From positions 186,001 through 250,000 of the forward strand of contig JAMPGX010000001.1 in NCBI GenBank assembly GCA_023663725.1: a stretch of DNA of 64,000 nt. The letters run 5' to 3'. The position numbers were made by a program, and so were the translations under genes. Every line of letters begins with the position of its first letter. Positions within the stretch are counted from its first letter, which is position 1. The stretch is from a bacterium (GTDB taxonomy: Bacteria > Bacillota > Clostridia > Lachnospirales > Lachnospiraceae). The notes under the pieces are model-generated. The model saw only the letters and a list, made by a program, of their open reading frames with translations, did not search any database and was not told the origin of the DNA. This document shows, piece by piece, positions 10,393 to 59,672 of this stretch.

Positions 10393-12479
10393 ATCCCCCA
10401 TGCTCCCAGCGTCAATAATGTGGCCCCTTCCGCCACTCGAAAATACCAGAATCCTTGGTATTGCAGCTCTACACGGCTGGTACCCTCCCTCAGTCGGACC
10501 CTCACCACATGATTATCCCCATCCACAACCTCCAGCCTCTGTCCCAGTCCGTCCCGAGCTTCATATCCTCCGTAATACAGCAGAGGAACCTCCACCCAGT
10601 CTCCCGCATGGGCATCCTGCAACTGGAGACTGATGCGGGTCCCCTGCTTCTCATATCCGGTCAAACCCACGGAGCCACCAGTGATATATCGCCCGGGCGT
10701 CAACCGACTTTTATCTGTTCCCCACGGGAAATATTCGTCATCATACCCTGCGGTAGCATAACTGTCCACGGCTCTTCCCTGCTTCAGCGCGGGTTCAAGG
10801 CCGGTGGTATAGGCGGTTCCCCAGTAAATGAAGGCCAGGCTGCATATGCCAAGCGCCGCCCAGATAGTCAGACGCCGCTCCTGCTCCCCACGTCCGGCCA
10901 TAATCCCCGCCGCTGCCAGACAGAACATGGGAGAAGCCAGGCTCAGGAACCGCCAGGGCATCCGCACTGTACCGCAGAATGCATTGATCAGCTTGACGCG
11001 CTGTAACAGCTGCCAGGGAAACAGCGTGCTGGACATCAGGAGCAGCGCCATCCCCATCGCCGTCAGCACACCGTAATATTTCTCCTTGTCGTCCTCCCCC
11101 CTTTTTCCCCTAAGGAAGAACACCGCGCACAGCGCCATCGCCCCAGTCACACCTACCCCCAGAGAAAGGGACATATTCCCCCGCAGCCCATGCTCCAGCA
11201 GCTGCGAATAACCGAAGCTGGTATTGAAGACATTGAACAGCTCTGTGGGAAACACTGCATTCTGATAAAATTCCGTATTCTCCGGAGTATGCTTGATCGC
11301 CAGGTCCGTCCCCAGATAATAAGTCAGAAAAGGGATCAGATACCACAGGTTTAAAAACAGTGTGAGTGTTCCCGCCTTCACAAATCCCAGAAAGCGCTCC
11401 TTTGTAGCAAGCGCACGCCAATAGATCCCAGCCGCCACCGCTATCGTGATCGCCGCAAAGATCGTGCTGATCATATGAGACTGGAAAATGCCGCTACAGC
11501 CCAATGCCAACACCCACCATTTCCTGGGTTCTCCGGCAAGCAGCAGGTACAGTCCGTAGAGCAACACCGGAAAGAAAGCCATGGCCAGCGCCTCCCCCAG
11601 AGCGGCCCGATAATAGAGATTGATGATCCGCCAGGTGGACAGCGTGTACAGAATGGAGGCCAGCATTCCCGCATACCGAGATTTGGCGACACCCTTCGCG
11701 CAGACATACATAATCCATGCTGTCATACCGTTCACAGCAAACAGAAAAGTGTTGTAAGCCATCACCGGAGACGCTCCCATGAGTCGGAGGATCGCCGGAA
11801 AATACAAAAAAAGCTCCGGGTAAACGCCAGGCGTTATATATCCGTAGCCATTATTATGGGTGGGATGGAGTCTCACGGGAAATTGTCCCTCCAAAAGGCC
11901 GTCCTTGATCCCCTCTATCCGGTACAGGTGAAAATTCAGATCATGTCCCTGCCCCACTACATTGGCATACAGGGGATAGCTGGCCAGCACTGTCACTGCC
12001 AGCAGCACACAGAATACCAGAGACTGCGGTGCGGAATCACTCCTCCGTCGGTTCCACCCCAGAGCCAGCACCAGCGCTCCAAGGCCCAGGCTCAGAAGAA
12101 AATAATCCCTGTATATGGCGCCTCCCCTGACATGAACTACCTCCAGGTAATTGATGCTGCCCTCCTGTCCCCCATAGAGAACAATATCGCTCTCATCCTT
12201 TTTCAAATGAATGGAAAACGGCTCCTGTGCATCGCCAGTCCCCAGCAGAGTACCCTCCCCGTTATATACATAGACCGGACCCGTCCCTCCTGCGAGCAGC
12301 TCATATTCTCCCTTGGGCAGAGTCAGATGCGGCTGATAGCTTTGCCAGAGCCCCTGCGCCTCCACATAGCTCTCCGCCGTCAGCTCCATCCGCAGAGTTC
12401 TCTGCCCATATGCATTCATCCACATAAGCGCCACCGTCAATGCCGACAGCAGCAACACCGATTGCAATCCCTTTTTCAT
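10332..12479 (-). CDS. Membrane protein with 6-pyruvoyl-tetrahydropterin synthase-related (YfhO-like) domain
   Basis: About 715 residues. The start is the ATG at 12479 (MKKGLQSVLLL) with GGCGAGAG upstream. After an N-terminal helix and a soluble segment come many membrane helices containing DLNFHLYRIEGIKDGLL, FPVRLHPTHNNGYGY and VYPELFLYFPAI, the pattern of the PTPS-related membrane family, related to YfhO-like glycosyl transfer proteins. The C-terminal soluble portion is beta-rich. It overlaps the next gene and follows the PHP gene by 26 bases, so it is within an operon, probably for envelope polysaccharide modification (inference). Confidence 0.82.
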   Translation of the reverse strand: MKKGLQSVLLLSALTVALMWMNAYGQRTLRMELTAESYVEAQGLWQSYQPHLTLPKGEYELLAGGTGPVYVYNGEGTLLGTGDAQEPFSIHLKKDESDIVLYGGQEGSINYLEVVHVRGGAIYRDYFLLSLGLGALVLALGWNRRRSDSAPQSLVFCVLLAVTVLASYPLYANVVGQGHDLNFHLYRIEGIKDGLLEGQFPVRLHPTHNNGYGYITPGVYPELFLYFPAILRLMGASPVMAYNTFLFAVNGMTAWIMYVCAKGVAKSRYAGMLASILYTLSTWRIINLYYRAALGEALAMAFFPVLLYGLYLLLAGEPRKWWVLALGCSGIFQSHMISTIFAAITIAVAAGIYWRALATKERFLGFVKAGTLTLFLNLWYLIPFLTYYLGTDLAIKHTPENTEFYQNAVFPTELFNVFNTSFGYSQLLEHGLRGNMSLSLGVGVTGAMALCAVFFLRGKRGEDDKEKYYGVLTAMGMALLLMSSTLFPWQLLQRVKLINAFCGTVRMPWRFLSLASPMFCLAAAGIMAGRGEQERRLTIWAALGICSLAFIYWGTAYTTGLEPALKQGRAVDSYATAGYDDEYFPWGTDKSRLTPGRYITGGSVGLTGYEKQGTRISLQLQDAHAGDWVEVPLLYYGGYEARDGLGQRLEVVDGDNHVVRVRLREGTSRVELQYQGFWYFRVAEGATLLTLGAWGIWWWRRRGQGALAGRAIRRP

Positions 12480-19605: not shown

Positions 19606-20062
19606 ACTCTCTCCTCCATTCTGCTGCTGCCGCAGCTTTGCATCGCTGCCCGCGCACAATCTGATCCCGCTGCATCGGCCAAGATGCACGCCTCTCTGCC
19701 CGCGGGAATAAAAATGCCGGCACACACGCGCCGACGAATCATATCACGAAATTATTCCTGATATTACACGATAGCGCCCCATCCAGTTACACAGATGACA
19801 GTCATACAATTATTCACTGTATGCCCAAGGATACAGCTGCCAACCCACTGTTCCTTTCGGCGTATGTTCCTTTCCTCTCTCTTCCTATGTGGTGGCCACA
19901 TCCAAAAGAGTACTCATAAAATACGCAACCTCTATCTCATTTTTTATATCATAGCATTGACTCCCGCCTTTGTCAATGCAAAAATCCTGACCTTCTGTGG
20001 AATCGTTGTATGAAAGCAACGCGGCGGAAGGACATTCCGGCAAATCTGCCGACAAAATACAA
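19606..20062. other. 457-bp stretch without a gene upstream of dapA
   Basis: No open frame with a credible start. I looked for a lysine riboswitch on the minus strand ahead of dapA and could not find its conserved core. A short palindrome, ATGTGG-TGG-CCACAT, lies at 19887-19901. I see no other clear structure. Confidence 0.5.
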
Positions 20063-43459: not shown

Positions 43460-46400
43460 ATTTCAATCCACACTCCCGCACGGGGAGTGACACCGCTTTG
43501 ACCGCACCCGATAGCGTCAACTACATCATTTCAATCCACACTCCCGCACGGGGAGTGACTATATTATAGCCTTGATTATACATTGGACACTATAATTTCA
43601 ATCCACACTCCCGCACGGGGAGTGACCGGAGCCGGCTCGTGTCTGAGTAGCCAGGCCAGGGAATTTCAATCCACACTCCCGCACGGGGAGTGACGTGAAC
43701 AAAGGTGGTCATTGTGGCTATCGGTGCAATTTCAATCCACACTCCCGCACGGGGAGTGACTACATCACAAATTCATATCATGTAAATGTCAGAATTTCAA
43801 TCCACACTCCCGCACGGGGAGTGACATTTATAACGGCTACGATACTCTGGCAACGGTAATTTCAATCCACACTCCCGCACGGGGAGTGACATTCTTTCCG
43901 GCATGTCTATTTATGAGATCATTATTTCAATCCACACTCCCGCACGGGGAGTGACACAGGTGTGATAAAGACAAGCTTTATAATTTGCAGAATTTCAATC
44001 CACACTCCCGCACGGGTGTGACGTTACATAATCCATTATGTTGCACGCCAGCAGCAATTTCAATCCACACTCCCGCACGGGGAGTGACAAAAACGATATA
44101 AATACCGTTATCAATCGCTGAAAATTTCAATCCACACTCCCGCACGGGGAGTGACAACTACTGCTACTCGCACGGATGGCACTGGAATATTTCAATCCAC
44201 ACTCCCGCACGGGGAGTGACCCCCGGCAGGCTCTACCCCAGGGGGGGGGATAAATTTCAATCCACACTCCCGCACGGGGAGTGACTTTTGCCATTCAATG
44301 GCTTTGATTTCTGTCATTTGATTTCAATCCACACTCCCGCACGGGGAGTGACTCTACATCATCAAGATAAGGCCGGCCACCTGCGCCATTTCAATCCACA
44401 CTCCCGCACGGGGAGTGACAATTAACACACTAGCATAATTATGGCGATCTGTGGATTTCAATCCACACTCCCGCACGGGGAGTGACGTCATGCGGATACA
44501 TCATAAGGCTGTCACCGACAAATTTCAATCCACACTCCCGCACGGGGAGTGACTGTCGCTGCTCCGGCGGACAAGCCGATAGTGGATAAATTTCAATCCA
44601 CACTCCCGCACGGGGAGTGACAACGGGGCTAAAAAGGGATGGTGATCGGTTTTTCCCATTTCAATCCACACTCCCGCACGGGGAGTGACATGTAAGCCTT
44701 GAATATCCAGTCCAATACCTACAATTTCAATCCACACTCCCGCACGGGGAGTGACTCAATCAAGATTATAGCCATACAACAATACAAAAATTTCAATCCA
44801 CACTCCCGCACGGGGAGTGACCCGGAAATGTTCGAGGTGGTCACTCAGAATCGCAAATTTCAATCCACACTCCCGCACGGGGAGTGACCATTTATCATTT
44901 GCTATATTCCCATCATCTTCCAGAATTTCAATCCACACTCCCGCACGGGGAGTGACCATTCTTCCACAAAGGCATCCACGTTCCCTGCCTATTTCAATCC
45001 ACACTCCCGCACGGGGAGTGACCATAGTCCCTCCTTTCCGGGACTCTGTAAGAAGCAATTTCAATCCACACTCCCGCACGGGGAGTGACACTCCCTGGAG
45101 CAGTTAAAGATTGATCAAGATCAGATTTCAATCCACACTCCCGCACGGGGAGTGACGATTTGGCGGATGATCTGGAGACCCAGCAGCGCAAGATTTCAAT
45201 CCACACTCCCGCACGGGGAGTGACATCTGGTTACAATTTAATTCTTGGTCGTGATGATTTCAATCCACACTCCCGCACGGGGAGTGACGCCAACTCCTTG
45301 AGTGTCATTCCTTTTTCATGGCATTTCAATCCACACTCCCGCACGGGGAGTGACGCGGAAAAAGGCTGGAATGATATCATGATAGGCAATTTCAATCCAC
45401 ACTCCCGCACGGGGAGTGACATATTTTTTAATATCATTGTATGTATAATAATCACATTTCAATCCACACTCCCGCACGGGGAGTGACGTGTGACTCCTTT
45501 CTCCCTGCTTGCTGCCGGATGTATTTCAATCCACACTCCCGCACGGGGAGTGACTTGCCATGCAGCGCTTCATCCTGCTTGCTTGCCAATTTCAATCCAC
45601 ACTCCCGCACGGGGAGTGACTGATGAGTTACAGGATAGATATGAGTGTGGAGCAAATTTCAATCCACACTCCCGCACGGGGAGTGACGATGTTTGCATTC
45701 TGCATGTCAATAGCTTGGCCGATTTCAATCCACACTCCCGCACGGGGAGTGACTTTATCTGGCAGTACCTCAAAATACTCCTGTAAATTTCAATCCACAC
45801 TCCCGCACGGGGAGTGACTATTGTGGTCGTCGGAATTATTAAATTATTTAAATTTCAATCCACACTCCCGCACGGGGAGTGACTAAGCCTGTTTTTACTC
45901 TTAATTCTTGGATTTCTATTTCAATCCACACTCCCGCACGGGGAGTGACTGTTCTGGATACCGCTCTGTGCGTTCAGGATAGCAATTTCAATCCACACTC
46001 CCGCACGGGGAGTGACAGAGTATACAAAGAATGGTGTTGTTGTAGATTGCGATTTCAATCCACACTCCCGCACGGGGAGTGACGGCGATTAGAGGATTAT
46101 GGTGCATTCTTGCGGAGATTTCAATCCACACTCCCGCACGGGGAGTGACATAGCGCTTATCATGATAGCGAGTTGGTGATTGATATTTCAATCCACACTC
46201 CCGCACGGGGAGTGACCCCATCCGTTCATGCAGTTGCCGCCACCGTTGCCGATTTCAATCCACACTCCCGCACGGGGAGTGACGAATGGTAAGTGGATAT
46301 TCGATAAACTTTGAATCATTTCAATCCACACTCCCGCACGGGGAGTGACGGTTCGCCCCATATGTCTGTAAGACTGGATTTCATATTTCAATCCACACTC

Positions 46401-48534
46401 CCGCACGGGGAGTGACCGAGGTGGTAAAAATGGCCGGGAAAGCAGTAAGCGATTTCAATCCACACTCCCGCACGGGGAGTGACATATGCAGACGCAACGG
46501 GAATTACCTTTCCCAGAATTTCAATCCACACTCCCGCACGGGGAGTGACCCATTGTCCTTGCGTGTTATGGTATGCGGCGCTCTATTTCAATCCACACTC
46601 CCGCACGGGGAGTGACCATATCTATACCCCCTTGAATAAAGTTAATATATATTTCAATCCACACTCCCGCACGGGGAGTGACACTCTTCGCCTATGATTG
46701 TCCCCCATATGGGGGCATTTCAATCCACACTCCCGCACGGGGAGTGACCTGCTGGCGGATGTATTTTACCAGCGGGAGTAGATTTCAATCCACACTCCCG
46801 CACGGGGAGTGACACTCTTCGCCTATGATTGTCCCCCATATGGGGGCATTTCAATCCACACTCCCGCACGGGGAGTGACGTTTCGGATATATGTATCATT
46901 AAGAGACTATGTAATTTCAATCCACACTCCCGCACGGGGAGTGACATAAATGTACGGATTTTAGAGTGGTAGTGATCCCATTTCAATCCACACTCCCGCA
47001 CGGGGAGTGACCGCCTGGCTTGCCTTGGTGCCAATAGCTTGTTCTAAAATTTCAATCCACACTCCCGCACGGGGAGTGACGATTACACCCTGTTCAAATG
47101 TTGTGGGCTTTTCCATTTCAATCCACACTCCCGCACGGGGAGTGACTATTTCCTGCTGCCGTTGATCTTCTGGGATCTTCGATTTCAATCCACACTCCCG
47201 CACGGGGAGTGACAGATCTGGAATCGCTGGAAAATATTCGCTTTGTAATTTCAATCCACACTCCCGCACGGGGAGTGACCCGGCTCTCGCTTATTATCGC
47301 CCAGTACGGCCATATTTCAATCCACACTCCCGCACGGGGAGTGACCATAGTCTCTTAATGATACATATATCCGAAACAGATTTCAATCCACACTCCCGCA
47401 CGGGGAGTGACGAAATTCCAAGCCCGTTATATCTTTCTTGTTCTATTTCAATCCACACTCCCGCACGGGGAGTGACGCTGGCTGCATATATAGTCAAAAG
47501 ACCGGATGAGATTTCAATCCACACTCCCGCACGGGGAGTGACGCAGGTGTCAGAGCGTTGGCACAAAGAGAGGATGATTTCAATCCACACTCCCGCACGG
47601 GGAGTGACCTGTAGTCTCGTTCCTAGATCCCAGTCATTTGAATTTCAATCCACACTCCCGCACGGGGAGTGACCCGAACCTCTGGGGCATATAATCCCAG
47701 GCTTTCAAATTTCAATCCACACTCCCGCACGGGGAGTGACGCCCCTGTATTTGCGCGCTTCTCCTGATCTTTCCCATTTCAATCCACACTCCCGCACGGG
47801 GAGTGACTCCTTTTGATTTTTGCCGTCCTCAAAGTATAGCCTATTTCAATCCACACTCCCGCACGGGGAGTGACCGGCTACATGGTTAGGGTTGTATTCG
47901 TTTGCCTATTTCAATCCACACTCCCGCACGGGGAGTGACCTCCCTACCCTGTCCCAGCATTTTCGATACGGCAATTTCAATCCACACTCCCGCACGGGGA
48001 GTGACGATGTTTGCCGTGTTGTCGCCTAGAGATAGATTTTATTTCAATCCACACTCCCGCACGGGGAGTGACCGGATCATTCGCCTGGCTCTCTTCAACT
48101 GCTTCCTATTTCAATCCACACTCCCGCACGGGGAGTGACAACATTGATTCTGTCCTTTCGTGCAATTTAAGGAGATTTCAATCCACACTCCCGCACGGGG
48201 AGTGACGACGACAATCTATCTTTGTCAGAGCATATTAAAATTTCAATCCACACTCCCGCACGGGGAGTGACCCTCCCCAAAGGGTGCATCCGTCAGTTAA
48301 AAAGAGATTTCAATCCACACTCCCGCACGGGGAGTGACTTTTCATTGAGCGTATCCCATGCTCCGCCAGAAATTTCAATCCACACTCCCGCACGGGGAGT
48401 GACGGCGACTCGTGGCGCTGCCAGGTGAGGCCAAGGATTTCAATCCACACTCCCGCACGGGGAGTGACGTTTGCTGCCAATGTAATCATGGAATATGAAA
48501 CGATTTCAATCCACACTCCCGCACGGGGAGTGAC
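43460..48534 (-). CRISPR. Type I-C CRISPR array: 77 repeats, 76 spacers
   Basis: A 32-base repeat beginning ATTTCAATCCACACTCCCGC on the plus strand; in crRNA orientation it starts GTCACTCC and ends GTGGATTGAAAT, the I-C type. Spacers are 32-37 nt. One repeat differs: the ninth from the left (43992-44022) is 31 bases and ends GGGTGTGAC. The spacer at 46683-46716 is identical to that at 46814-46847. Transcription should run from the leader at 48535-48699 leftwards, so the newest spacers are near 48500. Repeats at both ends are intact. Confidence 0.97.
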
Positions 48535-48699: not shown

Positions 48700-48990
48700 T
48701 CAGAAGATAATCGGAGCATCCAGATTTGGCACCGCCTTATTGCCATAGTGCTCAATACGGTTTTGGTATGCATTCCCCATACGGTAAAACCGCAAGCTGT
48801 CTTCCGCTTCATTGATTATTTTCAGAAGACCACTTTTAAATGAGACAAATTGAGCCTCATCCATAATGCACTCAAACACCGAGTTCTGGACGCGCTGACC
48901 ATAATTCTGACATTGTTTGGCGACCTTCCGCAATCTGGCTCTTCCTGCAGACGTTTCAGTAGACACATCATAAGTGACAACGATAAGCAT
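48700..48990 (-). CDS. cas2: Cas2, CRISPR adaptation endonuclease-like subunit
   Basis: A 96-residue protein, start ATG at 48990 behind GGAGGG. The ferredoxin-fold start MLIVVTYDVSTETSAGRARL contains the conserved catalytic-type Asp (YD). Cas2 forms the core of the Cas1-Cas2 integrase. It is the last gene before the leader and array. Confidence 0.96.
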   Translation of the reverse strand: MLIVVTYDVSTETSAGRARLRKVAKQCQNYGQRVQNSVFECIMDEAQFVSFKSGLLKIINEAEDSLRFYRMGNAYQNRIEHYGNKAVPNLDAPIIF

Positions 48991-49037: not shown

Positions 49038-50069
49038 TCATTTCCACAAAAATGGCGGGTATCCGTCCAAGTCACCTCTTATGAATCTTGCCAGAAGCAA
49101 TGCCTGCACATAGGGGACAAGTCCCCACTCAATGCTCTCCTGCAAATAGGGATGCGTTAGCTTTTCTGCCTTTTTGTTCTGCCACGCGGACAGGACCTTT
49201 TTCCTCCCTGCTTCATTCAGGAAAACCGCCTTATTCTCTTTTTGCTCAAAATCCGAGGCATCAACCATTTTCTTGTTGATACAGGACAGGACAAAGCGGT
49301 CGGCATAAGGCGCTCTGAGCTCCTCCATCAGATCCAGCGCCAGAGAACAACGCCCCGGTCGGTCCGTATGCATAAAGCCCGCATAGGGATCTAACCCCAC
49401 CGTCTCCAGAGCAGCTACACACATACCGGTTAAGAGCGCATAGGTAAAGGAGAGCAACGCATTAACCTTGTCCAGCGGTGGGCGCCTGTTTCTGGTATCG
49501 AAGAAAAACTCTTCTCGCTGCTGCAAAATCAACTGGTCAAACTGGGAAAAATAGCGCGAAGCCGCCTCCCCCTCAATTCCCCGCAGCATATCTACAGAAT
49601 CCGCCTCTTTTGCCATCTGCAGAGTTTCCTTCAACTGCATGGAAACAAGACTGAGCTTTTCCGTATCCAGTCTCTCTTCATAGTCGCGTACAGCTCTACC
49701 GATCACACTTCGCTGATTAAATATTTTTCCAATCATGAAATTCCTGGCGATCTCCAAGGTCTGCCCTCGGTCGTCCGCCATCCGATACTGCGTTCTTCTC
49801 AGCAGGATATTGCCATATGCTTTTCCCGTCACCTTAGCCCTGAACCTGCCTGAAGGTGCCAGAAATGTCATGGAGATATTGCGGTTCGCGCATTTCTCCA
49901 TGAGAGCCGGGCTTGCACCTGCATATCCGCACGTCACAATCGCTTCAAAATTGTGTAGCGGCAGCCTCCCTACCTCTTTCCTATTTTGAGAAATAATCAC
50001 ATTTTCCCCATCCAGCGACAGATAATATTCGTTGGAAGTAATATATAACGTGTTCAGCAATTTCCTCAT
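49038..50069 (-). CDS. cas1: Cas1 integrase (type I-C)
   Basis: A 343-residue protein, the normal length for I-C Cas1. Metal-binding residues are seen in EGEAASRYFSQF (Glu), YAGFMHTDRPGRCSLALDLMEELR split as FMHTDRPG (His) and LALDLMEE (Asp). It inserts new spacers at the leader. Start ATG at 50069, GAGGAT 10 bases upstream. Unlike the usual tight packing, 211 bases separate it from cas4. Confidence 0.96.
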   Translation of the reverse strand: MRKLLNTLYITSNEYYLSLDGENVIISQNRKEVGRLPLHNFEAIVTCGYAGASPALMEKCANRNISMTFLAPSGRFRAKVTGKAYGNILLRRTQYRMADDRGQTLEIARNFMIGKIFNQRSVIGRAVRDYEERLDTEKLSLVSMQLKETLQMAKEADSVDMLRGIEGEAASRYFSQFDQLILQQREEFFFDTRNRRPPLDKVNALLSFTYALLTGMCVAALETVGLDPYAGFMHTDRPGRCSLALDLMEELRAPYADRFVLSCINKKMVDASDFEQKENKAVFLNEAGRKKVLSAWQNKKAEKLTHPYLQESIEWGLVPYVQALLLARFIRGDLDGYPPFLWK

Positions 50070-50280: not shown

Positions 50281-51015
50281 TCAGTCCTCAAATTGAGAGA
50301 TATACTGTTTCACATCTTTCCGATTTTCCAGCCTGGGCAGACAGACCTCCCGCAGTGAACACGCCTCGCACTTTTTTGTCTTCTTTACCTTGGGAGTGTA
50401 TCCCCTCTCGTAGAGCTGATGCATCTCCTGAAGCAGCCGCCGACACTCCTCCCGCAAATCATCGGTAATCTCCACACATTCTCTTCTGCGGGTCTCCCCG
50501 TAAAAGAGGTAGGCTTGCGGGATTTCCGTCAAAAACATTTCTTCCAGACAAATGACCTGAGCCGTCAGTTGCATCCTGTCCTCGTCAGTGATTTTCGACT
50601 TGCCCCGTTTGTACTCAACCGGATACAGAATATACGTTTCGTCTTCCCGCATATCGCTTTTCCTGACAAAAATATCGCCTTGCTCATCACGCAGCAGTGA
50701 ACTCCCACGGCTTCCGCGACTGGGCAAGTATATTCCGTCCTCCGCCCGTACAAATTCCACCACATCGCACTCCCCGCTTACACCCAGCGTTCTGGAATGC
50801 ACGGGCATCCCTCTGGAGACGATCACATCTCTCCTCTTCTCCCTGGAATACCCGTCATGCACCTTCTCGTGGAAAAGACTGCCCTTCACCGTGAGGACAT
50901 TCTCCTCCCACTGCTGCTCGATGTGGATTAAGGCCCACTGCCTCCTGCAGAATGTAAAATGCTGCAGACCCGCAAGCTGCAGGAAATCCTCCTCCCTGTA
51001 CTCAGTTTCCCTCAT
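50281..51015 (-). CDS. cas4: Cas4 (type I-C, RecB-like nuclease)
   Basis: A 244-residue PD-(D/E)XK nuclease with an iron-sulfur site: a Cys in LQHFTFCRRQW and the C-terminal group KKCEACSLREVCLP. Catalytic residues lie in SGECDVVEF and YPVEYKRGKS. Cas4 trims prespacers and selects for PAM. Start ATG at 51015, inside the end of cas7 (14-base overlap). Confidence 0.95.
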   Translation of the reverse strand: MRETEYREEDFLQLAGLQHFTFCRRQWALIHIEQQWEENVLTVKGSLFHEKVHDGYSREKRRDVIVSRGMPVHSRTLGVSGECDVVEFVRAEDGIYLPSRGSRGSSLLRDEQGDIFVRKSDMREDETYILYPVEYKRGKSKITDEDRMQLTAQVICLEEMFLTEIPQAYLFYGETRRRECVEITDDLREECRRLLQEMHQLYERGYTPKVKKTKKCEACSLREVCLPRLENRKDVKQYISQFED

Positions 51016-51862
51016 AGATCTCAACCTTCAAATCCGGCATCTCAGCCACCGTTATCTCAAAATCATCTGGACTCTTGGGAATCTCCACCTCAGGCTTTTT
51101 ATGTACCTGCAAGCTCCTGTGTACCTTGGCGGAGGAATACTGTCCCAGGAAGCAATTGTGTTTCCACCAGATCACCTTGCACACCTCCATGCTGCCGTCA
51201 GGTCTGGCGGAGGAAGCGTCATTCTCAAAAAGCGTCACCAATATCTGCCGGATCACCTCCGCATCCTCGTCGGAAAAACCGGTCTTTTCCGCCAACTGAT
51301 GATTAATGCTGCCGTAGGTAATATACATACCAAAGTCAACTCTGTGCTTCATCCCCATCGTATCCGAGGACTTCTTGTCGCTGGGCTCGCTGTTGACGCT
51401 CTTCGTGATCTGCATGGACGAAATGTCTACTGGCAACACACTCACAGCCGTCTGTATGGACACCGGCCCTCTCACGCCCACCGAGACGCCGTCCTCATCC
51501 TTCCCCTTGCTCTTAAAGGCAAACACCTGGCCAAACGCGCGCACATCCATCCATTTTTTGCAGGCTACCGCCGCATATTTCTCCTTATCCTTGCCCGCCT
51601 CCTTGAGCTCCGGCGCGGCGCCCGCCCTCTCGCTCAGGCTCCTGAAGCCGTCCATGCTCTTCTCATCGGACTGGACGAACACCGGGTATCCCATATCCAT
51701 CATACGGTTGCGGATCTTCCTCTTGAGACATACATCAGATACTTCCCCAAAACCGTCGTAAGTCTCCCTGGGCCTGTTCCCGTTTAACGGATCGCCGTTA
51801 GGATTGGCATTCTTCACGCTGAATACCACTGCAAAATCAATCTTATTTGTAAATTCGCTCAT
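51002..51862 (-). CDS. cas7: Cas7/Csd2, Cascade backbone subunit (type I-C)
   Basis: A 286-residue RAMP-fold protein. The start IDFAVVFSVKNANPNGDPLNGNRPRE is diagnostic of Csd2; later GVRGPVSIQTAVSVLP and WWKHNCFLGQYSSAKVHRSL match. It polymerises along the crRNA. Start ATG at 51862 with GGATGG upstream; 45 bases after cas8c. Confidence 0.96.
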   Translation of the reverse strand: MSEFTNKIDFAVVFSVKNANPNGDPLNGNRPRETYDGFGEVSDVCLKRKIRNRMMDMGYPVFVQSDEKSMDGFRSLSERAGAAPELKEAGKDKEKYAAVACKKWMDVRAFGQVFAFKSKGKDEDGVSVGVRGPVSIQTAVSVLPVDISSMQITKSVNSEPSDKKSSDTMGMKHRVDFGMYITYGSINHQLAEKTGFSDEDAEVIRQILVTLFENDASSARPDGSMEVCKVIWWKHNCFLGQYSSAKVHRSLQVHKKPEVEIPKSPDDFEITVAEMPDLKVEIYEGN

Positions 51863-51907: not shown

Positions 51908-52297
51908 TCAATCTTTTGTCTCTTCGCTCTCCGTCTTCCTGAAATAATCCCGATACTCGATAATCTGACTGCTGTAGCCCTGCAAAAATGTGGGCTCCAG
52001 CTTTCCTTTTTCGGCGAGATCCAGTCTGGCTGTCAGTCTGTCCATCTGTTCTATATAGAAGGTTTTTTTCGCTGACTTCAACTTCATCACATACGGCTGC
52101 AATTGATTCCTGATCGTTGTCCAGGTTTCCACCGGATACCTCTGAAACCGGATAAAATACTTCTCTGCCGCCGTACTTCTGCCCTCCTTACTGCCGCCGC
52201 TTCCCATTGCCAGAGCGCTTCTCTCCAGCATCTCCGCGGTGGCCAGCAGTTGCCCGAAGATATAGCTTCTATCCTTGCTCTCCACATCCAAACTCAT
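51908..52297 (-). CDS. cas11: Cas11c, small Cascade subunit from internal start in cas8c
   Basis: Within cas8c, a perfect GGAAGGAGG site lies eight bases before the ATG at 52297, in frame. It would give a 129-residue, mostly helical protein (start [18 protein letters not shown]). In type I-C, Cas11c is known to be made from such an internal start. Based on the sequence and the known pattern; expression is not shown here. Confidence 0.8.
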   Translation of the reverse strand: MSLDVESKDRSYIFGQLLATAEMLERSALAMGSGGSKEGRSTAAEKYFIRFQRYPVETWTTIRNQLQPYVMKLKSAKKTFYIEQMDRLTARLDLAEKGKLEPTFLQGYSSQIIEYRDYFRKTESEETKD

Positions 52298-53743
52298 ACG
52301 GTGTTCCTCCTTCCCGTCTCCTCTTTCTATTTGCCACTTTCTCAGCAGCGCGCACGTGACCGTCACTGCCCTGTTCCACTCCCAATAGTCCTTATAATGC
52401 ATAGGATTTACCGCTTTCTGCAGAGCCGACAGCACGATGTCATAGGGGAGTCTCCTGCCCTCGACGATACAGGGCAAGAGCCGTTCCCGTATGCTCTTAT
52501 TCCATTTTTCGTTCTTATCTCCTGCCACCAGCTTCACGATCTCCGGCAGAGAGGGGGACCAGGGTACAAAGGTCTGAAGCTTATTGGACCGGTTCAGCCA
52601 GCAGACCTCCTTTTTCCATCTGGAAATATTGCGGATAAATTGCTTGGCTCCATATTTCTGATAGAACGGCACGGACAACCGGCCTGTGGTTGCCGCCTCC
52701 ACCCCCATGACCATTACGGTATCCTTATCTGCGGGAGGTTCGCCGGGACCCCATATGGCTTTTCTCACCCAGTCGGCATACGCTTCATCCGTGAAAGCCT
52801 GATCCTCGTCCTCCCAGTACAACTCGGCAAAGGGATTTTTCATTTCCGGCTTTTCTATCGACCACACCACGAAAACCTGCTCGCCCATTTTCATCTGATA
52901 AGCAGTCTGCCTGGCAATCAGCCAGCGCAGCGCGCTGTGGGCCTTCTGAGAAATCTCATAGCTCACGGAAGCCACCTGACGGCTATCGCTGAAGCGCCCC
53001 TTGTATGTCAGTACTCCCGACGCATCATTGGAGGAGATCAGTTTGGCCTTGTCGCCGGTATTCCGTATTTTGGCGGGATGCTTCTCGGAGCAGGGGACTG
53101 TCTCGCCAGACACATAGCACAGCTCCCTGTCACTCTGGCCGGCCAGACAGTGCGCAATATAACTCTCAAACACCTGCTGGTCGCAGTACAGCCTGCTCTC
53201 CGGCTGGTCCGGTATCTCCACAGCGAAACGTACAAACCAATCCTCCAGCGCTATCCCCTGTTGCTTTTCCGCGATAATAGCGCCGTCCTCAAAAGCAAAT
53301 AATCCCGCTTCCAACAAGTCATGCATCAAAGTCCCCCTGCTCAGATACCGGTAGACCGATCCGATCCTGGGCAGGCCGTACTCGGACTCCGCCCAGTCCT
53401 TCAACTGCGCGAGATAGATTGTGTTCTTCTCCCTTTTGGCCCCCTGCACATAGTCCCCATAATCTCCGGCAATGTATTCCAGCTTATCGCACAGCGGGTG
53501 GGGAAAAACAGCCTTGCCGCTCCTGCTGCCGGAATCCTCCGTCACCGGAATGACAGTCACCGCATCCTCCTTGTCCACTCTGCAGGCTCTGACAAAATCT
53601 CCCTCCTCATCCAGAGTCACCTCCAGTTGAGCATTCTGTGTCAGATGAGCGATGGGCAGTAGCAGCGGCTGCCCTTCCCTGATCACTCCTGCCTCACTCT
53701 TGCAGGCTTCATAGGTCAGGTACAAATCAGTCATCCAGCTCAT
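51908..53743 (-). CDS. cas8c: Cas8c/Csd1, large Cascade subunit
   Basis: A 611-residue protein, start ATG at 53743 six bases after GGAGGTG. Family segments: [37 protein letters not shown], and [15 protein letters not shown]. It recognises the PAM and recruits Cas3. Its 3' part also encodes Cas11c. It overlaps the end of cas5c by 17 bases. Confidence 0.95.
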
Positions 53744-54461
53744 CCAGCACACCTCCCCCCGCAAAAGTGACATTCCCTTTTTTCAGACTGAATTCCTTGG
53801 CTCTGCGCCCTGTCAGAATCCGGCGTATCGGACACTCCTCCGGGGCGGGAAACGCGATAATTCCTTCCCGCATCTCCGGATGAAAAAATCTGGCGGTCAA
53901 CATATTTTTTTCCTCGTGCCTCACCGCCTCGTCCGGATAAGTAAAGCCGTGGAACATCAGCCCCAACGGGAACTCTCCGCACCCGTCATACGCCCCCTGG
54001 CCGCTGTCAAAATCGCAGGGCTCCACATAGCCCTGACACTCCCTGGTTCCGAGAAAGATATCCCTTCTTCCCCCCTTCTCCAGAGCGCGCTTCGCAATAA
54101 AGTAATGCTTGTTTTCATCCCTGTCTCCTGCCAGGTCCGGCCGGTTCTCATTCCATATAAAATGCGCCTGCACCCGGTATTCCACATCCGTCAGATACGT
54201 GTAGATGGACAGGGTATTGCCTCCGCCATAGTCTATGGGCCGCACGGCCTGAGACTCTGAACGGATGGGCTTCATGACGCGCACTCTGTCCACCACCCAG
54301 ACCAGAGTCGGCTTCCAGTAGATGCTTTCCAGCACGCCCTTCAGCGCCTGGTAAGTGGGGACCTGATAGGTGAATTTCTCACCGCCCATTCTGCTGACAG
54401 GATCTGTAAACAGCGCCCGCCGGCCTGTCAGCGCAAATGTAATACTGTTCTCTTTCTCCAT
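53727..54461 (-). CDS. cas5c: Cas5c, crRNA-processing endoribonuclease
   Basis: A 244-residue protein. Family marks: [35 protein letters not shown] and [13 protein letters not shown]. In type I-C systems, which lack Cas6, Cas5c cuts the repeat and stays on the 5' handle of crRNA. Start ATG at 54461 behind AAGGAGG. 31 bases downstream of cas3. Confidence 0.95.
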
Positions 54462-54492: not shown

Positions 54493-56994
54493 TCAGTACA
54501 TCTGTATCGGCATATTCCCGCTGATCTCTCCGGTTATACCGGCCTTTTCGTCGTAGTACATATCATTCAGAACATACATCCCCATCTCATCCTCCCATTG
54601 CACAACCCCCTTTCCCAGCTCTTTTATCTCATGATCGCGCAGGTTTACCACATATTGCTGCGCTTCCTTCAACAAGCTTTTTATCCGCCTGTACTCCGCA
54701 TTTCCGGGTTTTGTATTTCTCTGTATTTCATCCCAGATCTCTTTTCCCCTGCCTATGGGAACGAACACTGAGCTCCCCCCTTCCTCTATCACACGGAACT
54801 GCTCTGCCGCCGTCTTGAACGCCTGATTTAACCCTCTCGGTTCATAGGATTTATGCTCCACGCCAGACCGAACCAAGCTGCCATTGTCCGCCAACAGACC
54901 GTATAGGGTATGGCCACTTGGCGCTAAAACCGGATAAATCATTTCGCTCCTTCTCTTCCAGAAATAGTAACGGAAATAAGTTTGTATCGCCTTCTCCGAC
55001 AACAATTCGCCGTCAAAACCCGCGGGATTTTCAGCGAACTCCCTCAGCAGCCTATCCGAAGCTTCCGCTCCAACTTTGATATCTTTTAGCTGCTTCAGCG
55101 ACTCCAATTTTTCACAGGGATTGACAATATAGACGGTCTCCACGCCCCGCAGTCCCTCCCTGTTGCACCGCCCCGCCGCCTGCACGATGGAATCCATCCC
55201 CGCCAGAGAGCGCACCACACAGGAAAAATCGAAGTCGATGCCCGCCTCGATCAATTGGGTGCTGACCACGATGATTCTTTCTCCGTCAGACAAAGCCCTG
55301 CGAATTTCATCGATGATACTTTTTCTGTGTGCCGCATAGAGCTTTGTGGAGAGATAATACACCTGATATGCTTCCCCCGCCCTCTTTTGCACCGCGCCGT
55401 ACAGGGCAAGCGCACAGTTCCTGGTGTTCAGGATCGCCAGCAGATTACCCCTTTCCTGCGCCTTTTCCCAGATAAAATCCGCCAGCTCCTCCTCGGTATA
55501 GCCGCCTGTTTTCAATTGCGGCTCCACCCGCACCCGCCTGAAGATGTCTCCAGCCTCCGAAGGCAGCTCCGCCAGAGCCGCAGACGCCGCGATTCTCGCA
55601 GGGTATGTCGGCTTCACCGTCTCCCCCAGCAGCGGCTGTGTGGCGGTACACAGCACACAAGTACAGCCGCAGAACTCTGTCAGATAGTTGATCAGGCTGT
55701 TGAACAGAGCGATCTGCTTCACCGGAAGAGTCTGAACCTCGTCAAAAAGTATCACTGCATTCTGAAACTGATGGGCAGGACGCAGATTCCTTGTGCCAGA
55801 CGCAAAAAAGGTATTCAGGAAACGAACCATCGTAGTCAGGACAATGGGCTCTTCCATTCTCTGCGCCCAGAAATCCCCATCCGTCGAAATATCCCCCCTG
55901 CTCCCGTGTGGATCACCGCTGTGCTCCACCTGGGAGTGCAGCTCCAGAATACTGTTTTTCACCAGATCGTCCATGGCGCTATCGCCGGCGTTTTCTCCAC
56001 GCAGCGCCTTTCTTACGCTTTTTGCGGTCTGGTCAATAACGGACAGATAGGGAATGATATAGAATATCCTATCCTTATCCTGCCGGATACAGTGGGACAG
56101 GGCAAAACGGGTCACAGCCAGAGTTTTTCCCGCCCCGGTAGGACAGGAGAGCGTATAGATGCCGCCCTTCCTCGCTCCTGCTTCCCCGCAGCGGTCAGAG
56201 ATATAATTTCTCCATACATTGATGGGTTTAGGAGACTGACCGATCCGCTGTATCTCCTTCTCAAGATTGTTCAGGCAATGTGCAAACAGCGCCTTCGCGG
56301 GCGCTATGCGCTCATGATGTCCGCCGCGCCAGTCGGCTGCTGGCGACTCCAGTTCTCCGCCGGTCGCGCTGTCCAGCCAGTCCGCGTCAATCAGGGACGA
56401 AAGCAGCATCTTTTCCGCCATCCCCAGAAAGAAACCGGTCTCCGCCGGTTTATCCGAACGTTCTATTATCTCCTGAAACAACGCTTCTGCCTCCGCATAG
56501 GCCTGCCGCAAAAGCTTTTCAAAACTCTCATGAGATATAACCGCCTCCCAGAAATACTCCTCCGCCTCGGCCAATTCTGTCTCGTCGCATTGCATCCTGG
56601 CCCGGTATCCGTCCTCTCCCTGGGGAGATATATTGTCCGACAATGCGGTATGATGGGAAAATATCGCCTCACACATCGCCTGCAGCGCAAGGCTTCGAAA
56701 CAGATTATCCTGTTTGCCCGCTAGCTTATTCAGGAGCACCGCACCTGCGGATGCGTGACCGCCTGTCTGTCCCGGATCGGAGCCGCCTGAGCGTATGACA
56801 TCCATCCTGTGTTGAAACGATGCGCCGGCCTTGCCCAGATCATGCAACAGACCGACCAGATATCCCATGGCCGGACACTGCATCTTCCGCGTATTTTCAC
56901 AGCATAACAGGGCCACCTGAGTCAAATGCGCCGTCAAGTCCTGTTCTGTGATTCCATTCTCCGTATGCGTGATATGTGCAATCTTTGTTTTCAC
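54493..56994 (-). CDS. cas3: Cas3 helicase-nuclease (type I-C)
   Basis: About 833 residues. HD nuclease motifs [17 protein letters not shown] and FSHHTALSD; helicase motifs [14 protein letters not shown] (Walker A), [11 protein letters not shown] (DEVQ-type motif II), [21 protein letters not shown] and [10 protein letters not shown]. It unwinds and degrades Cascade-bound DNA. I prefer the GTG start at 56994 (GAGAGGT six bases upstream; protein [14 protein letters not shown]); a GTG at 57045 is possible and would abut kwaB. Confidence 0.95.
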
Positions 56995-57047: not shown

Positions 57048-57920
57048 TCAGCTTACAGACCGTTTTGAGTTTGTAATATATGTGGCATTGGAAAATGACC
57101 CCTTATATACTTCCTCGTCCAGAAAACCCAATATAATCTTCATATCCTTTTTTCCCATGGGAATCACGATTTTTTCATCCCTGATCACGACATTGATCCC
57201 TGTCCGCTTCCCGATTCTCTGAATCTCACGGGCCGAATATTTCTCCAGTACTCCCGAATCCAGAATAGACGCTATCTTTTTGCGGACCCGACTGTCTGCT
57301 TGTCCAATGAATAGTTCCGCATTATCCATTGCCAGCTCCTTCAACTGTGTAAATCTCTCCACCTCGCCCTGCGTCGCCTGACGGTAATAGGCCATCAGGC
57401 TGAATATCTGCCTTGCCATAAAGAAGGACTTAAACAACAGTTTTCCGTCCTCATAGATACAGTCTATCTCATCAGATATGGATATCCCGAAACGCTTCTC
57501 CTGTACAAAAGTGTCCCTGTCAAAGAACAGATTAATGCCCTTTACACTGATGTACTGCTCCCTCTTAAACTTTTGGAATGCAATGATTGTCCTGTTGTCA
57601 CAGACTTCCCCGACAAAGACGGCCTTGATCTTGTCCGCATTGCTTTCATTGGGAATGAACGATTCGATGCCTGCCGGCGTTTCCACTGCTCTTCGTATCT
57701 CCGCCTCCAATTCATAGTCTGGGATATATAGCATTTCATCCGCATCAGGACTGTAATTTCCGTCAAAAGGAATCTGCTCCACACCCTCCAGCATGACACG
57801 GTAAGCTTGGACATAGCTCTGACATATGGCGGCCTGCGCTTTTCTGTCTGTCTCTATTTTACATATCTCCAGCTTTTCATTGTCCTGTAGCAAAACCATC
57901 ACTGACGCATTTTCAAACAT
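57048..57920 (-). CDS. kwaB: KwaB-like protein (DUF4868), Kiwa defence
   Basis: A 290-residue soluble protein. The middle (about 110-200) has the DUF4868 signature: KGINLFFDRDTFVQEKRFGI, SDEIDCIYEDGKLLFKSF and MARQIFSLMAYYRQAT QGEVERF. The ends are mixed. In Kiwa, KwaB works with the membrane protein KwaA against phage. Start ATG at 57920 behind GGGGAGG. It is directly downstream of the kwaA-like gene (67-base gap) and directly upstream of cas3, same strand. Confidence 0.78.
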   Translation of the reverse strand: MFENASVMVLLQDNEKLEICKIETDRKAQAAICQSYVQAYRVMLEGVEQIPFDGNYSPDADEMLYIPDYELEAEIRRAVETPAGIESFIPNESNADKIKAVFVGEVCDNRTIIAFQKFKREQYISVKGINLFFDRDTFVQEKRFGISISDEIDCIYEDGKLLFKSFFMARQIFSLMAYYRQATQGEVERFTQLKELAMDNAELFIGQADSRVRKKIASILDSGVLEKYSAREIQRIGKRTGINVVIRDEKIVIPMGKKDMKIILGFLDEEVYKGSFSNATYITNSKRSVS

Positions 57921-57987
57921 ATGTATTCCTCCCCATATAATGATAGCATTCCCTCGCTCGGTTCCCCGTAAGGCAGATCCGTGACCG

Positions 57988-58518
57988 TTATTGATCCCCC
58001 TCTATGTATTCCAGCATCAAGGTATCGCTGATACGGACAACCTGGGTAACCTGCTCGATACTTCTCATTCCCCGCCTCCTGCTGATCAGCACACATGCCG
58101 TCCCTGTAGACAGATTCGCTCTGTAACAATGATAACCTGCCAATAGTAAGACGGGACAAAATCCCAGGTCACCCACCCTTATCAGTACGGCAAAAATACT
58201 CACTGCAATCAATATCCATACGATAATGTCATTTTTCCACACAATTCCTACCAGTGGAATCAAATACGCAACAAAGCTTACCAGAACAGATGAATCGTCC
58301 TGCGATATGCTGTCAATCGTAATTTTTAATACAGGCAATTTCTTTTCACACAATTTGATAAAAATATAGGTGTAAATCATGTTGACTAAACCGAAAAGTC
58401 CCAACAGTATGCAGACTACTATGTTTGTACCTTGCAGGAAAAGAGTAATCGCCAAAAAGACACAGACTGGCGCAACACAACTCATTTTATAGATTAGCTT
58501 TTGAAATCCGTTAATCAT
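57988..58518 (-). CDS. kwaA: KwaA-like membrane protein, Kiwa defence
   Basis: A 176-residue protein with four membrane helices (about 11-30, 32-54, 77-94 and 97-115) and a short cytoplasmic tail. The segment VLVSFVAYLIPLVGIVWK and the block FCPVLLLAGYHCYRANL followed by ACVLISRR match the pattern typical of KwaA-like proteins. Start ATG at 58518 behind GGGGG. First gene of the island operon. Assigned mainly from size, topology, these motifs and the KwaB-like neighbour. Confidence 0.72.
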   Translation of the reverse strand: MINGFQKLIYKMSCVAPVCVFLAITLFLQGTNIVVCILLGLFGLVNMIYTYIFIKLCEKKLPVLKITIDSISQDDSSVLVSFVAYLIPLVGIVWKNDIIVWILIAVSIFAVLIRVGDLGFCPVLLLAGYHCYRANLSTGTACVLISRRRGMRSIEQVTQVVRISDTLMLEYIEGDQ

Positions 58519-58887
58519 CGCTTTTTGCCCCCAATTCTAAAACCTCATGACAAAAAATTCCAATATATGATATAATATGTTTTAGTGTAATAGCTTGTAT
58601 TTTATACTGTTATATATTTGCTAATCCTTTATGTCAATTATGAATCTTATACCATAGTTTACCATAAAGTATATTATGTGTCAACAGATAATACTTTCAT
58701 TATTGAAAGATTTATTTATGTCCTTTTGCATTTATTCCGAACGCTTATAAAGATTCGCCATACCATATATAAAAGCATCATCATTTTCAAAACTTTACTT
58801 CTGATTCTGCATATGATAGAATCTACATGTCAGTTTAGGCTGCGGGTTGAAATAATAAAGAAAGCATTAACGTCATCGGGCAACAAC
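58519..58887. other. AT-rich non-coding stretch upstream of kwaA
   Basis: No gene seen. It must contain the promoter for the Kiwa-cas transcript if that is one unit; candidates such as the TTACAC / TATATT pair near 58570-58600 on the minus strand are weak. Confidence 0.4.
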
Positions 58888-58922
58888 TACTTTACCCCCT
58901 CATCTCCTGAGGGGGTAAAGTA
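58888..58922. terminator. Strong hairpin between the AAA-like pseudogene and the island
   Basis: A perfect 14-bp stem TACTTTACCCCCTC with its complement around ATCTCCT. No T-run on either strand, so possible terminator or boundary hairpin. Confidence 0.5.
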
Positions 58923-58951: not shown

Positions 58952-59672
58952 TTATCTCCCAATCAACACCTTGCTTCCCTCAAAGGCAAAACCGTATTTC
59001 CTGATTACTCTGGTAATTCCCGTCATGACAGCTCTCTCGATATAAGGATTGGTCTTAAACGTTGCGTTAAACAGGCTTCTGGTAAACGCAGCCAACTCCT
59101 CCCAATATCCATAGACATATGCCTCCTGCATGGGCGTATCATATTCGTCCAAAAGAAAAATTACCTTCTTCCCATAATACCGCATTAGGAACCTGACAGC
59201 GCTTTCAGAGCATCCGTCGCTATATGGGCTTCCATGTCAAAAGAAACCTTCCGATAATATTTCTTTTCATCCTCCCTCAGAGTCCCGCTATCCAAGAGGA
59301 AATCAAACCGATTATACAACTCCGCAATGAGAAAGAAAAGCTTCTTCTGCGCACTCAGAAAAGTCGTTTCCTTTATAGGAGCAAAGCTGATAAAGATCAC
59401 TGGATATGTCCCCTGAAGCTGCCGATATCTCTCCTCTTTCCAGATATCCAGCCCCTCAAACAGATCATTCCTACCGGCATATTCCACGGAAAAGAATTTC
59501 TCCAGCATACTCATGGTCAGCGTCTTCCCAAAACGCCTGGGACGGGTAATCAGCGTTACCTCATCCTCCGCCTCCCACCACTCTCTGATGAAAGCCGTCT
59601 TGTCCACATAGAAAATATTACGCACCGCAGCTTTTCAAAATCCTGACATCCAATACTCACTGTCCTCGGCAT
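58952..59672 (-). pseudogene. AAA-ATPase-like / PD-(D/E)XK family gene, frameshifted and internally deleted
   Basis: Three pieces belong together. ATG at 59672 begins MPRTVSIGCQDFEKLR; the frame shifts to NIFYVDKTAFIREWW..ITRPRRFGKTLTMSML (Walker A-type) and again after ATDALKALS to FLMRYYGKKVIFLLDEYDTPMQEA. Then MTGITRV joins directly to IRKYGFAFEGSKVLIG, although the intact family has about 300 residues between. So two one-base losses plus a large in-frame deletion have removed the nuclease domain. Confidence 0.8.

What the first reader, a model, noticed from the sequence alone, without database searches (positions are those of the whole stretch)
57048..58518. Kiwa-like pair placed as the head of a type I-C cas operon
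KwaA-like and KwaB-like genes lie on the same strand as cas3 with gaps of 67 and about 50 (or 2) bases and no visible terminator between them. If one transcript covers all, a membrane defence would be made with the CRISPR effector. Whether this pairing is common is unknown to me.
Basis: partly seen in the sequence, partly recalled or inferred. Interest (0 to 1): 0.8.

Follow-up and report, generated by a model that had tools for sequence, protein, structure and literature searches.

The report
Kiwa genes inside CRISPR-repressed cas operon
In this gut bacterium the genes of a second antiviral system, Kiwa, sit at the start of the CRISPR gene cluster, just behind a switch through which the CRISPR machinery appears to hold its own genes (and so Kiwa too) in check, which could make Kiwa a back-up that comes on when a virus disables CRISPR.

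Summary
KwaA and KwaB are Kiwa homologues (PADLOC E 1e-25 and 1e-78) and lie 67 and 53 bases apart, head to tail, directly before a complete type I-C cas set with 76 exact repeats. The same order occurs in one further species of the genus, under purifying selection, but in no other I-C operon tested: the pairing is rare.

The main finding lies outside the given coordinates. Before kwaA, on the other strand, is a lone degenerate I-C repeat with a guide (58829-58870). The guide matches one place in the 64 kb: a TTC-flanked site over the -35 box of the promoter before kwaA; in its first 17 positions it differs only at 6, 12 and 17. Four relatives without kwaAB carry the same device before cas3, each with its own guide and target. 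This is the anatomy of CreR, the crRNA-like RNA by which Cascade represses its own cas promoter; a review lists it for I-B, I-E and V-A. kwaAB thus sits between a CRISPR-autorepressed promoter and cas3. Most likely Kiwa is made with the Cas proteins and derepressed when Cascade is titrated or blocked by anti-CRISPRs. Transcription and repression are inferred, not measured.

The parts
57988..58518 (-). kwaA, membrane protein of Kiwa (176 aa; two to three long hydrophobic stretches)
   Evidence: PADLOC KwaA 1.3e-25; 9mrg_A E 0.0036; hydropathy
57048..57920 (-). kwaB (DUF4868), 290 aa, no hydrophobic stretch
   Evidence: PADLOC KwaB 1.5e-78; PF16162 2.1e-10
54493..56994 (-). cas3 (I-C), GTG start
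   Evidence: PADLOC Cas3c 2.8e-174; start by comparison
53727..54461 (-). cas5c
   Evidence: TIGR01876 1.4e-74
51908..53773 (-). cas8c
   Evidence: TIGR01863 1.3e-95
51002..51862 (-). cas7c
   Evidence: TIGR02589 1e-101
50281..51024 (-). cas4
   Evidence: PADLOC Cas4c 1.4e-88
49038..50069 (-). cas1 (start by the reading)
   Evidence: TIGR03640 1.1e-142
48700..48990 (-). cas2
   Evidence: PF09827 9.1e-26
43461..48534 (-). CRISPR array, 76 exact 31-base repeat matches; crRNA sense taken as minus
58656..58684 (-). promoter-like site P1 of the operon: TTGACA, 17, TAAACT
58670..58707 (-). target of the guide: PAM TTC 58707-58705, protospacer 58704-58670, over the -35 box of P1
   Evidence: 0 of 2000 dinucleotide shuffles; letters checked
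58829..58853 (+). degenerate I-C repeat, crRNA-like RNA gene (CreR type)
58854..58870 (+). guide, first 17 bases
58794..58822 (+). promoter-like site of the guide RNA: TTTACT, 17, TAGAAT; similar in relatives
58888..58922 (.). 15-pair hairpin, likely terminator of the guide RNA and barrier to the upstream gene; tail poor in T and not flagged by the terminator scan
58609..58637 (-). second promoter-like site P2: TTGACA, 17, TATAAC, after the target (status open)

Best explanation
kwaA-kwaB-cas3-cas5c-cas8c-cas7c-cas4-cas1-cas2 is one operon whose promoter (58684-58656) is repressed by the I-C Cascade itself. A divergently transcribed crRNA-like RNA (CreR type; degenerate repeat 58829-58853, guide from 58854) leads Cascade to a TTC-flanked site over the -35 box. 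The match ends after about 18 positions, too short to license Cas3 cutting (recalled rule). kwaAB stands between this switch and cas3 in two species of the genus. When anti-CRISPR proteins, a high crRNA load or loss of Cas proteins empties the CreR-Cascade complex, the operon is derepressed and Kiwa (membrane KwaA with DNA-binding KwaB, which blocks injected phage DNA) is made together with fresh Cas proteins: a back-up against phages that disable CRISPR. Shown here: gene identities, order and conservation; the guide-target match; matching guide and target changes between species. Inferred: transcription of the RNA, Cascade binding, repression, Kiwa activity, and the back-up role.
For: Kiwa and I-C assignments. 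Same kwaA-kwaB-cas order in a second species with pN/pS 0.30 and 0.17. Guide and target: 14 of the 15 counted positions (1-17 without 6 and 12) in the window, one site in 64 kb, 0 of 2000 shuffles; the same for G1143, G1163, G1192 and G434, each guide scoring highest in its own region. Other I-C loci: 9 of 35, against 0 of 175 shuffled regions. The hits depend on ignoring every sixth position: 14, 12 and 7 of 43 regions at scores 13, 14, 15, other phases at most 5, 2 and 0. Repeat hairpins: 69 pairs in 13 loci, shuffle maximum 27. The RNA folds as hairpin, open guide, terminator hairpin. Switch before kwaA, no repeat in the kwaB-cas3 gap. CreR and CrePA as described in reviews.
Against: No expression or binding data. 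P2 (58637-58609, 11 of 12) lies after the target and might escape repression. The second kwaAB contig ends 70 bases before kwaA, so its switch is unseen. Of seven relatives with full upstream DNA, G1141 has the repeat but no target, and G1175 and G1209 show neither. G434's target has TTT, not TTC. Release by anti-CRISPRs is taken from other CRISPR types.
Confidence: 0.62

Rival explanations
1. Passenger: kwaAB landed in the cas operon as in any defence island. It is co-transcribed, but the CreR-type switch serves Cas dosage only and Kiwa gains no special back-up role.
For: The same switch exists without kwaAB in four relatives; kwaAB beside I-C is rare; Kiwa is known to lie in a CRISPR-linked defence island of S. 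thermophilus (PMC11514479, passages).
Against: The placement between switch and cas3 puts it under the switch whatever the reason; order kept and genes under purifying selection in two species.
Confidence: 0.25
2. Kiwa is not under the switch: P2 (58637-58609) or another promoter after the target drives kwaAB constantly, perhaps the cas genes too.
For: P2 matches 11 of 12 and lies 33 bases past the protospacer.
Against: P2 lacks the T at the end of the -10 box, usually the most constant base (recalled); in the four relatives the target lies at or over the -35 box (read by eye), as it does for P1.
Confidence: 0.09
3. The repeat and its match are a chance or decayed remnant without function.
For: Single degenerate repeat; G1141 shows that such elements decay.
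Against: 0 of 2000 shuffles in each of five loci, guide and target changing together between species, the phase control, and 9 of 35 further loci against 0 of 175 shuffled regions.
Confidence: 0.04

Closest known systems
Kiwa (KwaA-KwaB)
   Same: Both proteins, order kwaA-kwaB
   Different: Divergent branch below NCBIfam cut-offs; embedded before cas3 behind a CRISPR-type switch
CreR, crRNA-like autorepressor of cas operons (reviews PMC12737573, PMC13131331)
   Same: Degenerate repeat, guide partly matching the promoter at the head of the cas operon with a PAM
   Different: Type I-C, where the review passage seen names I-B, I-E and V-A; the operon carries a second defence system
CrePA, protein toxin under a CRISPR guide (PMC12737573, section)
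   Same: A defence protein whose promoter is held down by Cascade with a crRNA-like RNA and which anti-CRISPRs would release
   Different: The effector is Kiwa, not the KilA-N toxin CreP, and shares the promoter with cas
CR3 defence island of S. thermophilus (PMC11514479, passages)
   Same: Kiwa near a CRISPR locus
   Different: There it is part of a variable island; the passages seen report no shared cas operon or guide control

Membership tests
Kiwa | KwaA and KwaB homologues as a gene pair | tested here: met
   PADLOC and Pfam hits
Kiwa | NCBIfam equivalog cut-offs | tested here: not met
   39 of 100 and 22 of 200 bits
Kiwa | KwaA in the membrane | tested here: met
   Hydrophobic stretches in KwaA, none in KwaB; hydropathy only
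Kiwa | KwaA-KwaB complex and anti-phage activity | not testable with these tools
Type I-C CRISPR-Cas | cas3, cas5c, cas8c, cas7c, cas4, cas1, cas2 and array | tested here: met
CreR | Degenerate repeat plus guide outside the array | tested here: met
CreR | Partial guide match with PAM at the cas operon promoter | tested here: met
CreR | RNA made, bound by Cascade, represses cas | not testable with these tools
   Needs RNA and reporter experiments
CrePA | KilA-N toxin CreP with its own guide-repressed promoter | tested here: not met
   The genes behind the switch are kwaA and kwaB; it may work like CrePA but is not one

The most novel reading that the evidence does not exclude
CRISPR-gated Kiwa: a whole innate anti-phage system is wired into a CreR-autorepressed type I-C operon, so that any loss of free Cascade, above all through phage anti-CRISPRs, switches Kiwa on. 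The head of I-C operons may be a slot where such back-up systems are loaded.
Probability: 0.5. Interest if true: 0.85.

Novelty: new variant of a known kind. Interest (0 to 1): 0.74.

Why it matters
It gives a concrete, testable link between adaptive and innate phage defence: one RNA guide could set the dose of both. It points to crRNA-like autorepression in type I-C (14 guide-target pairs in 43 regions of one family) and suggests that placing a back-up defence behind the CRISPR switch is a way to answer anti-CRISPR phages without a toxin.

Tried and rejected
That the pairing is common: rejected. KwaB was found in 6 of 397 family genomes, 11 of 391 class genomes, 9 of 383 order genomes and 1 of 61 genus genomes; these samples overlap in part and each includes the window's own. 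Cas1 was searched in 16 KwaB genomes: 9 have it, and only that of L002 has it beside KwaB; some KwaB contigs are short (down to about 7 kb), so a neighbour beyond the contig end cannot be excluded. I-C cas genes were searched by tblastn in the DNA around 15 of these KwaB genes and around the 6 new ones of the order search: none. Other CRISPR types were not searched in those 6. 38 of 397 family genomes have a Cas3 match at 1e-80, and the only one with KwaB too is the window's own; DNA was read for 29 of the 37 others.

A phage or plasmid origin: no close relative of kwaB or kwaA in IMG/VR by near-exact peptide patterns; 2 distant phage hits and 1 plasmid hit for KwaB. The array has no megablast match in the phage collection. 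The genome scan by exact peptide patterns found one relative (L002) and reaches close relatives only.

Upstream alignment of the window with G434 alone was weak (5 of 500 shuffles) and was replaced by the guide-target test. A first shuffle test took the wrong repeat for the window and G1163 and is superseded. The pattern search in 7 genomes missed the known copies in G434 and G1143, so its negatives mean nothing. The DNA search for the upstream region found nothing in G1190, G397 and G1209 and one 25-base match in G1175.

Full report
Observation. NCBIfam's Kiwa cut-offs are not reached. They head a complete type I-C set on the same strand with 76 exact repeats. Gaps are 67 and 53 bases and a ribosome-binding sequence is visible before each gene. 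cas3 most likely starts at GTG 56994, as the relatives show. The scan finds no terminator in either gap.

Conservation. A second species of the same genus (L002; the same sequence is held as G1190 and G835; RpoB 95% identical to the window's genome) has the order kwaA-kwaB-cas3-cas5c-cas8c-cas7c-cas4-cas1. Synonymous sites are near saturation in kwaA and kwaB while pN/pS is 0.30 and 0.17; the cas genes give 0.08 to 0.28. So the join is old and kept, and is not an assembly artefact of one genome.

Rarity. Among 138 genomes of the genus 19 have an I-C Cas3 match at 1e-80, ten of them close (58-100% identity). kwaAB is present in two of the ten; seven with full upstream DNA lack it and one is cut off 151 bases before cas3. 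No kwaAB lies within the roughly 1.5 kb read before the nine distant ones, one of which has only 189 bases. In 397 family genomes 38 have this Cas3 and 6 have KwaB, and only the window's own has both. In 16 KwaB genomes tested for Cas1, only that of L002 has it beside KwaB.

The switch. In five of the seven close relatives without kwaAB a degenerate repeat lies before cas3 on the other strand. The window has the same element, but before kwaA: repeat 58829-58853 on the plus strand, guide from 58854, preceded by a promoter-like site 58794-58822. The guide AATAAAGAAAGCATTAA meets TTC|AATAATGAAAGTATTAT at 58704 on the minus strand, with mismatches at 6, 12 and 17 and no match beyond 18. It is the only such site in the 64 kb at score 12 or more. 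The protospacer covers the -35 box of the promoter 58684-58656. G1143, G1163, G1192 and G434 have their own guides and own targets (TTC in three, TTT in G434), at or over a -35 box by eye. In none of the five loci did any of 2000 dinucleotide shuffles reach the observed score, and each guide scores highest in its own region. G1141 keeps the repeat but has no target and has lost the RNA's -10 box. G1175 and G1209 show no such repeat within 600 bases and no pair within 1000.

Generality and controls. Of 38 further I-C loci (9 of the genus, 29 of the family), 35 have 150 or more bases upstream; 9 of the 35 have a guide-target pair at score 13 or more, and 0 of 175 plainly shuffled regions do. Over all 43 regions the hits depend on ignoring every sixth position: 14, 12 and 7 regions at scores 13, 14 and 15, against at most 5, 2 and 0 for the five other phases. 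Mismatches over the 14 pairs: position 6 in 11, 12 in 9, 18 in 11, all other positions 0 to 4. Because the score leaves these positions free, their mismatches are what absence of constraint gives; the phase control is the test. The flank is TTC in 9 and TTT in 5 of the 14; in L031 and L043 the guide runs with cas, and in L023, L024 and L031 the target is on the other strand. That Cascade leaves every sixth base unpaired, and that TTC is the I-C PAM, is recalled. Repeat hairpins have 4 to 9 pairs with changing sequence, 69 pairs in 13 loci against a shuffle mean of 8.4 and maximum of 27 (L023 and L024 were left out because their repeats do not fit the GTC start). The window's RNA folds as hairpin, open guide, terminator hairpin (z -3.7).

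Reading. CreR is a crRNA-like RNA that leads Cascade to the promoter of its own cas operon; repression is relieved by competing crRNAs or by anti-CRISPRs (PMC12737573, passages). A review passage lists it in I-B, I-E and V-A (PMC13131331); the primary papers could not be read. The related CreA RNAs have one or two degenerate repeats and a guide partly matching a promoter, with TTC as PAM in haloarchaea (PMC9458426, passages). CrePA is a toxin under the same kind of guide, released by anti-CRISPRs (PMC12737573, section). Kiwa forms membrane KwaA tetramers with KwaB dimers; KwaB binds injected DNA and stops replication and late transcription (PMC12904381, passages). Put together, the window's Kiwa genes stand behind a CRISPR-autorepressed promoter and would be released with the cas genes when Cascade is blocked. 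That is inference from anatomy.

Limits. There are no expression data. A second promoter-like site P2 (58637-58609) lies after the target. The second kwaAB contig ends 70 bases before kwaA, so its switch is unseen. Kiwa near CRISPR as such is known (PMC11514479, passages). The listings showed no paper on Kiwa in a cas operon or under CreR; the one paper with both 'Kiwa' and 'cas operon' speaks of them apart (PMC12935923, passages). Most subscription papers, including the Kiwa and CreR originals, are not held, so this is no proof of novelty.

The slot. Three other I-C operons have a defence-like gene 110-138 bases before cas3: PDC-S19 (L022), a PD-Lambda-2_B-like gene (L038) and a GmrSD/HEC-06-like gene (L050). 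No guide-target pair was detected in these three.

Noticed in passing
58952-59625: Upstream on the same strand, a broken PF09820 AAA-ATPase-like gene in two frames (E 1.5e-25 and 1.5e-10).
   Followed up: partly
L019, L021, L023, L024, L027, L031, L036, L040, L043, upstream of cas3: Guide-target pairs of CreR type before nine further type I-C cas3 genes.
   Followed up: partly
L022:370-1347, L038:278-1375, L050:4027-5388: Other defence-like genes (PDC-S19, PD-Lambda-2_B-like, GmrSD-like) stand directly before I-C cas3, as if the operon head were a slot.
   Followed up: partly
L009:6153-9452 with kwaAB at 9564-10970: In G106 the nearest complete kwaAB relative without cas is followed by an 1100-aa protein with an AAA domain and a weak Mrr-like nuclease start.
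   Followed up: no
58548-58537, minus strand: In the leader before kwaA a mini-ORF ATG AGG TTT TAG with a rare arginine codon, faintly like CreT toxins (recalled); no ribosome-binding sequence seen, probably chance.
   Followed up: no
19764-19942: Lysine riboswitch, minus strand (RF00168, E 9.3e-31).
   Followed up: no
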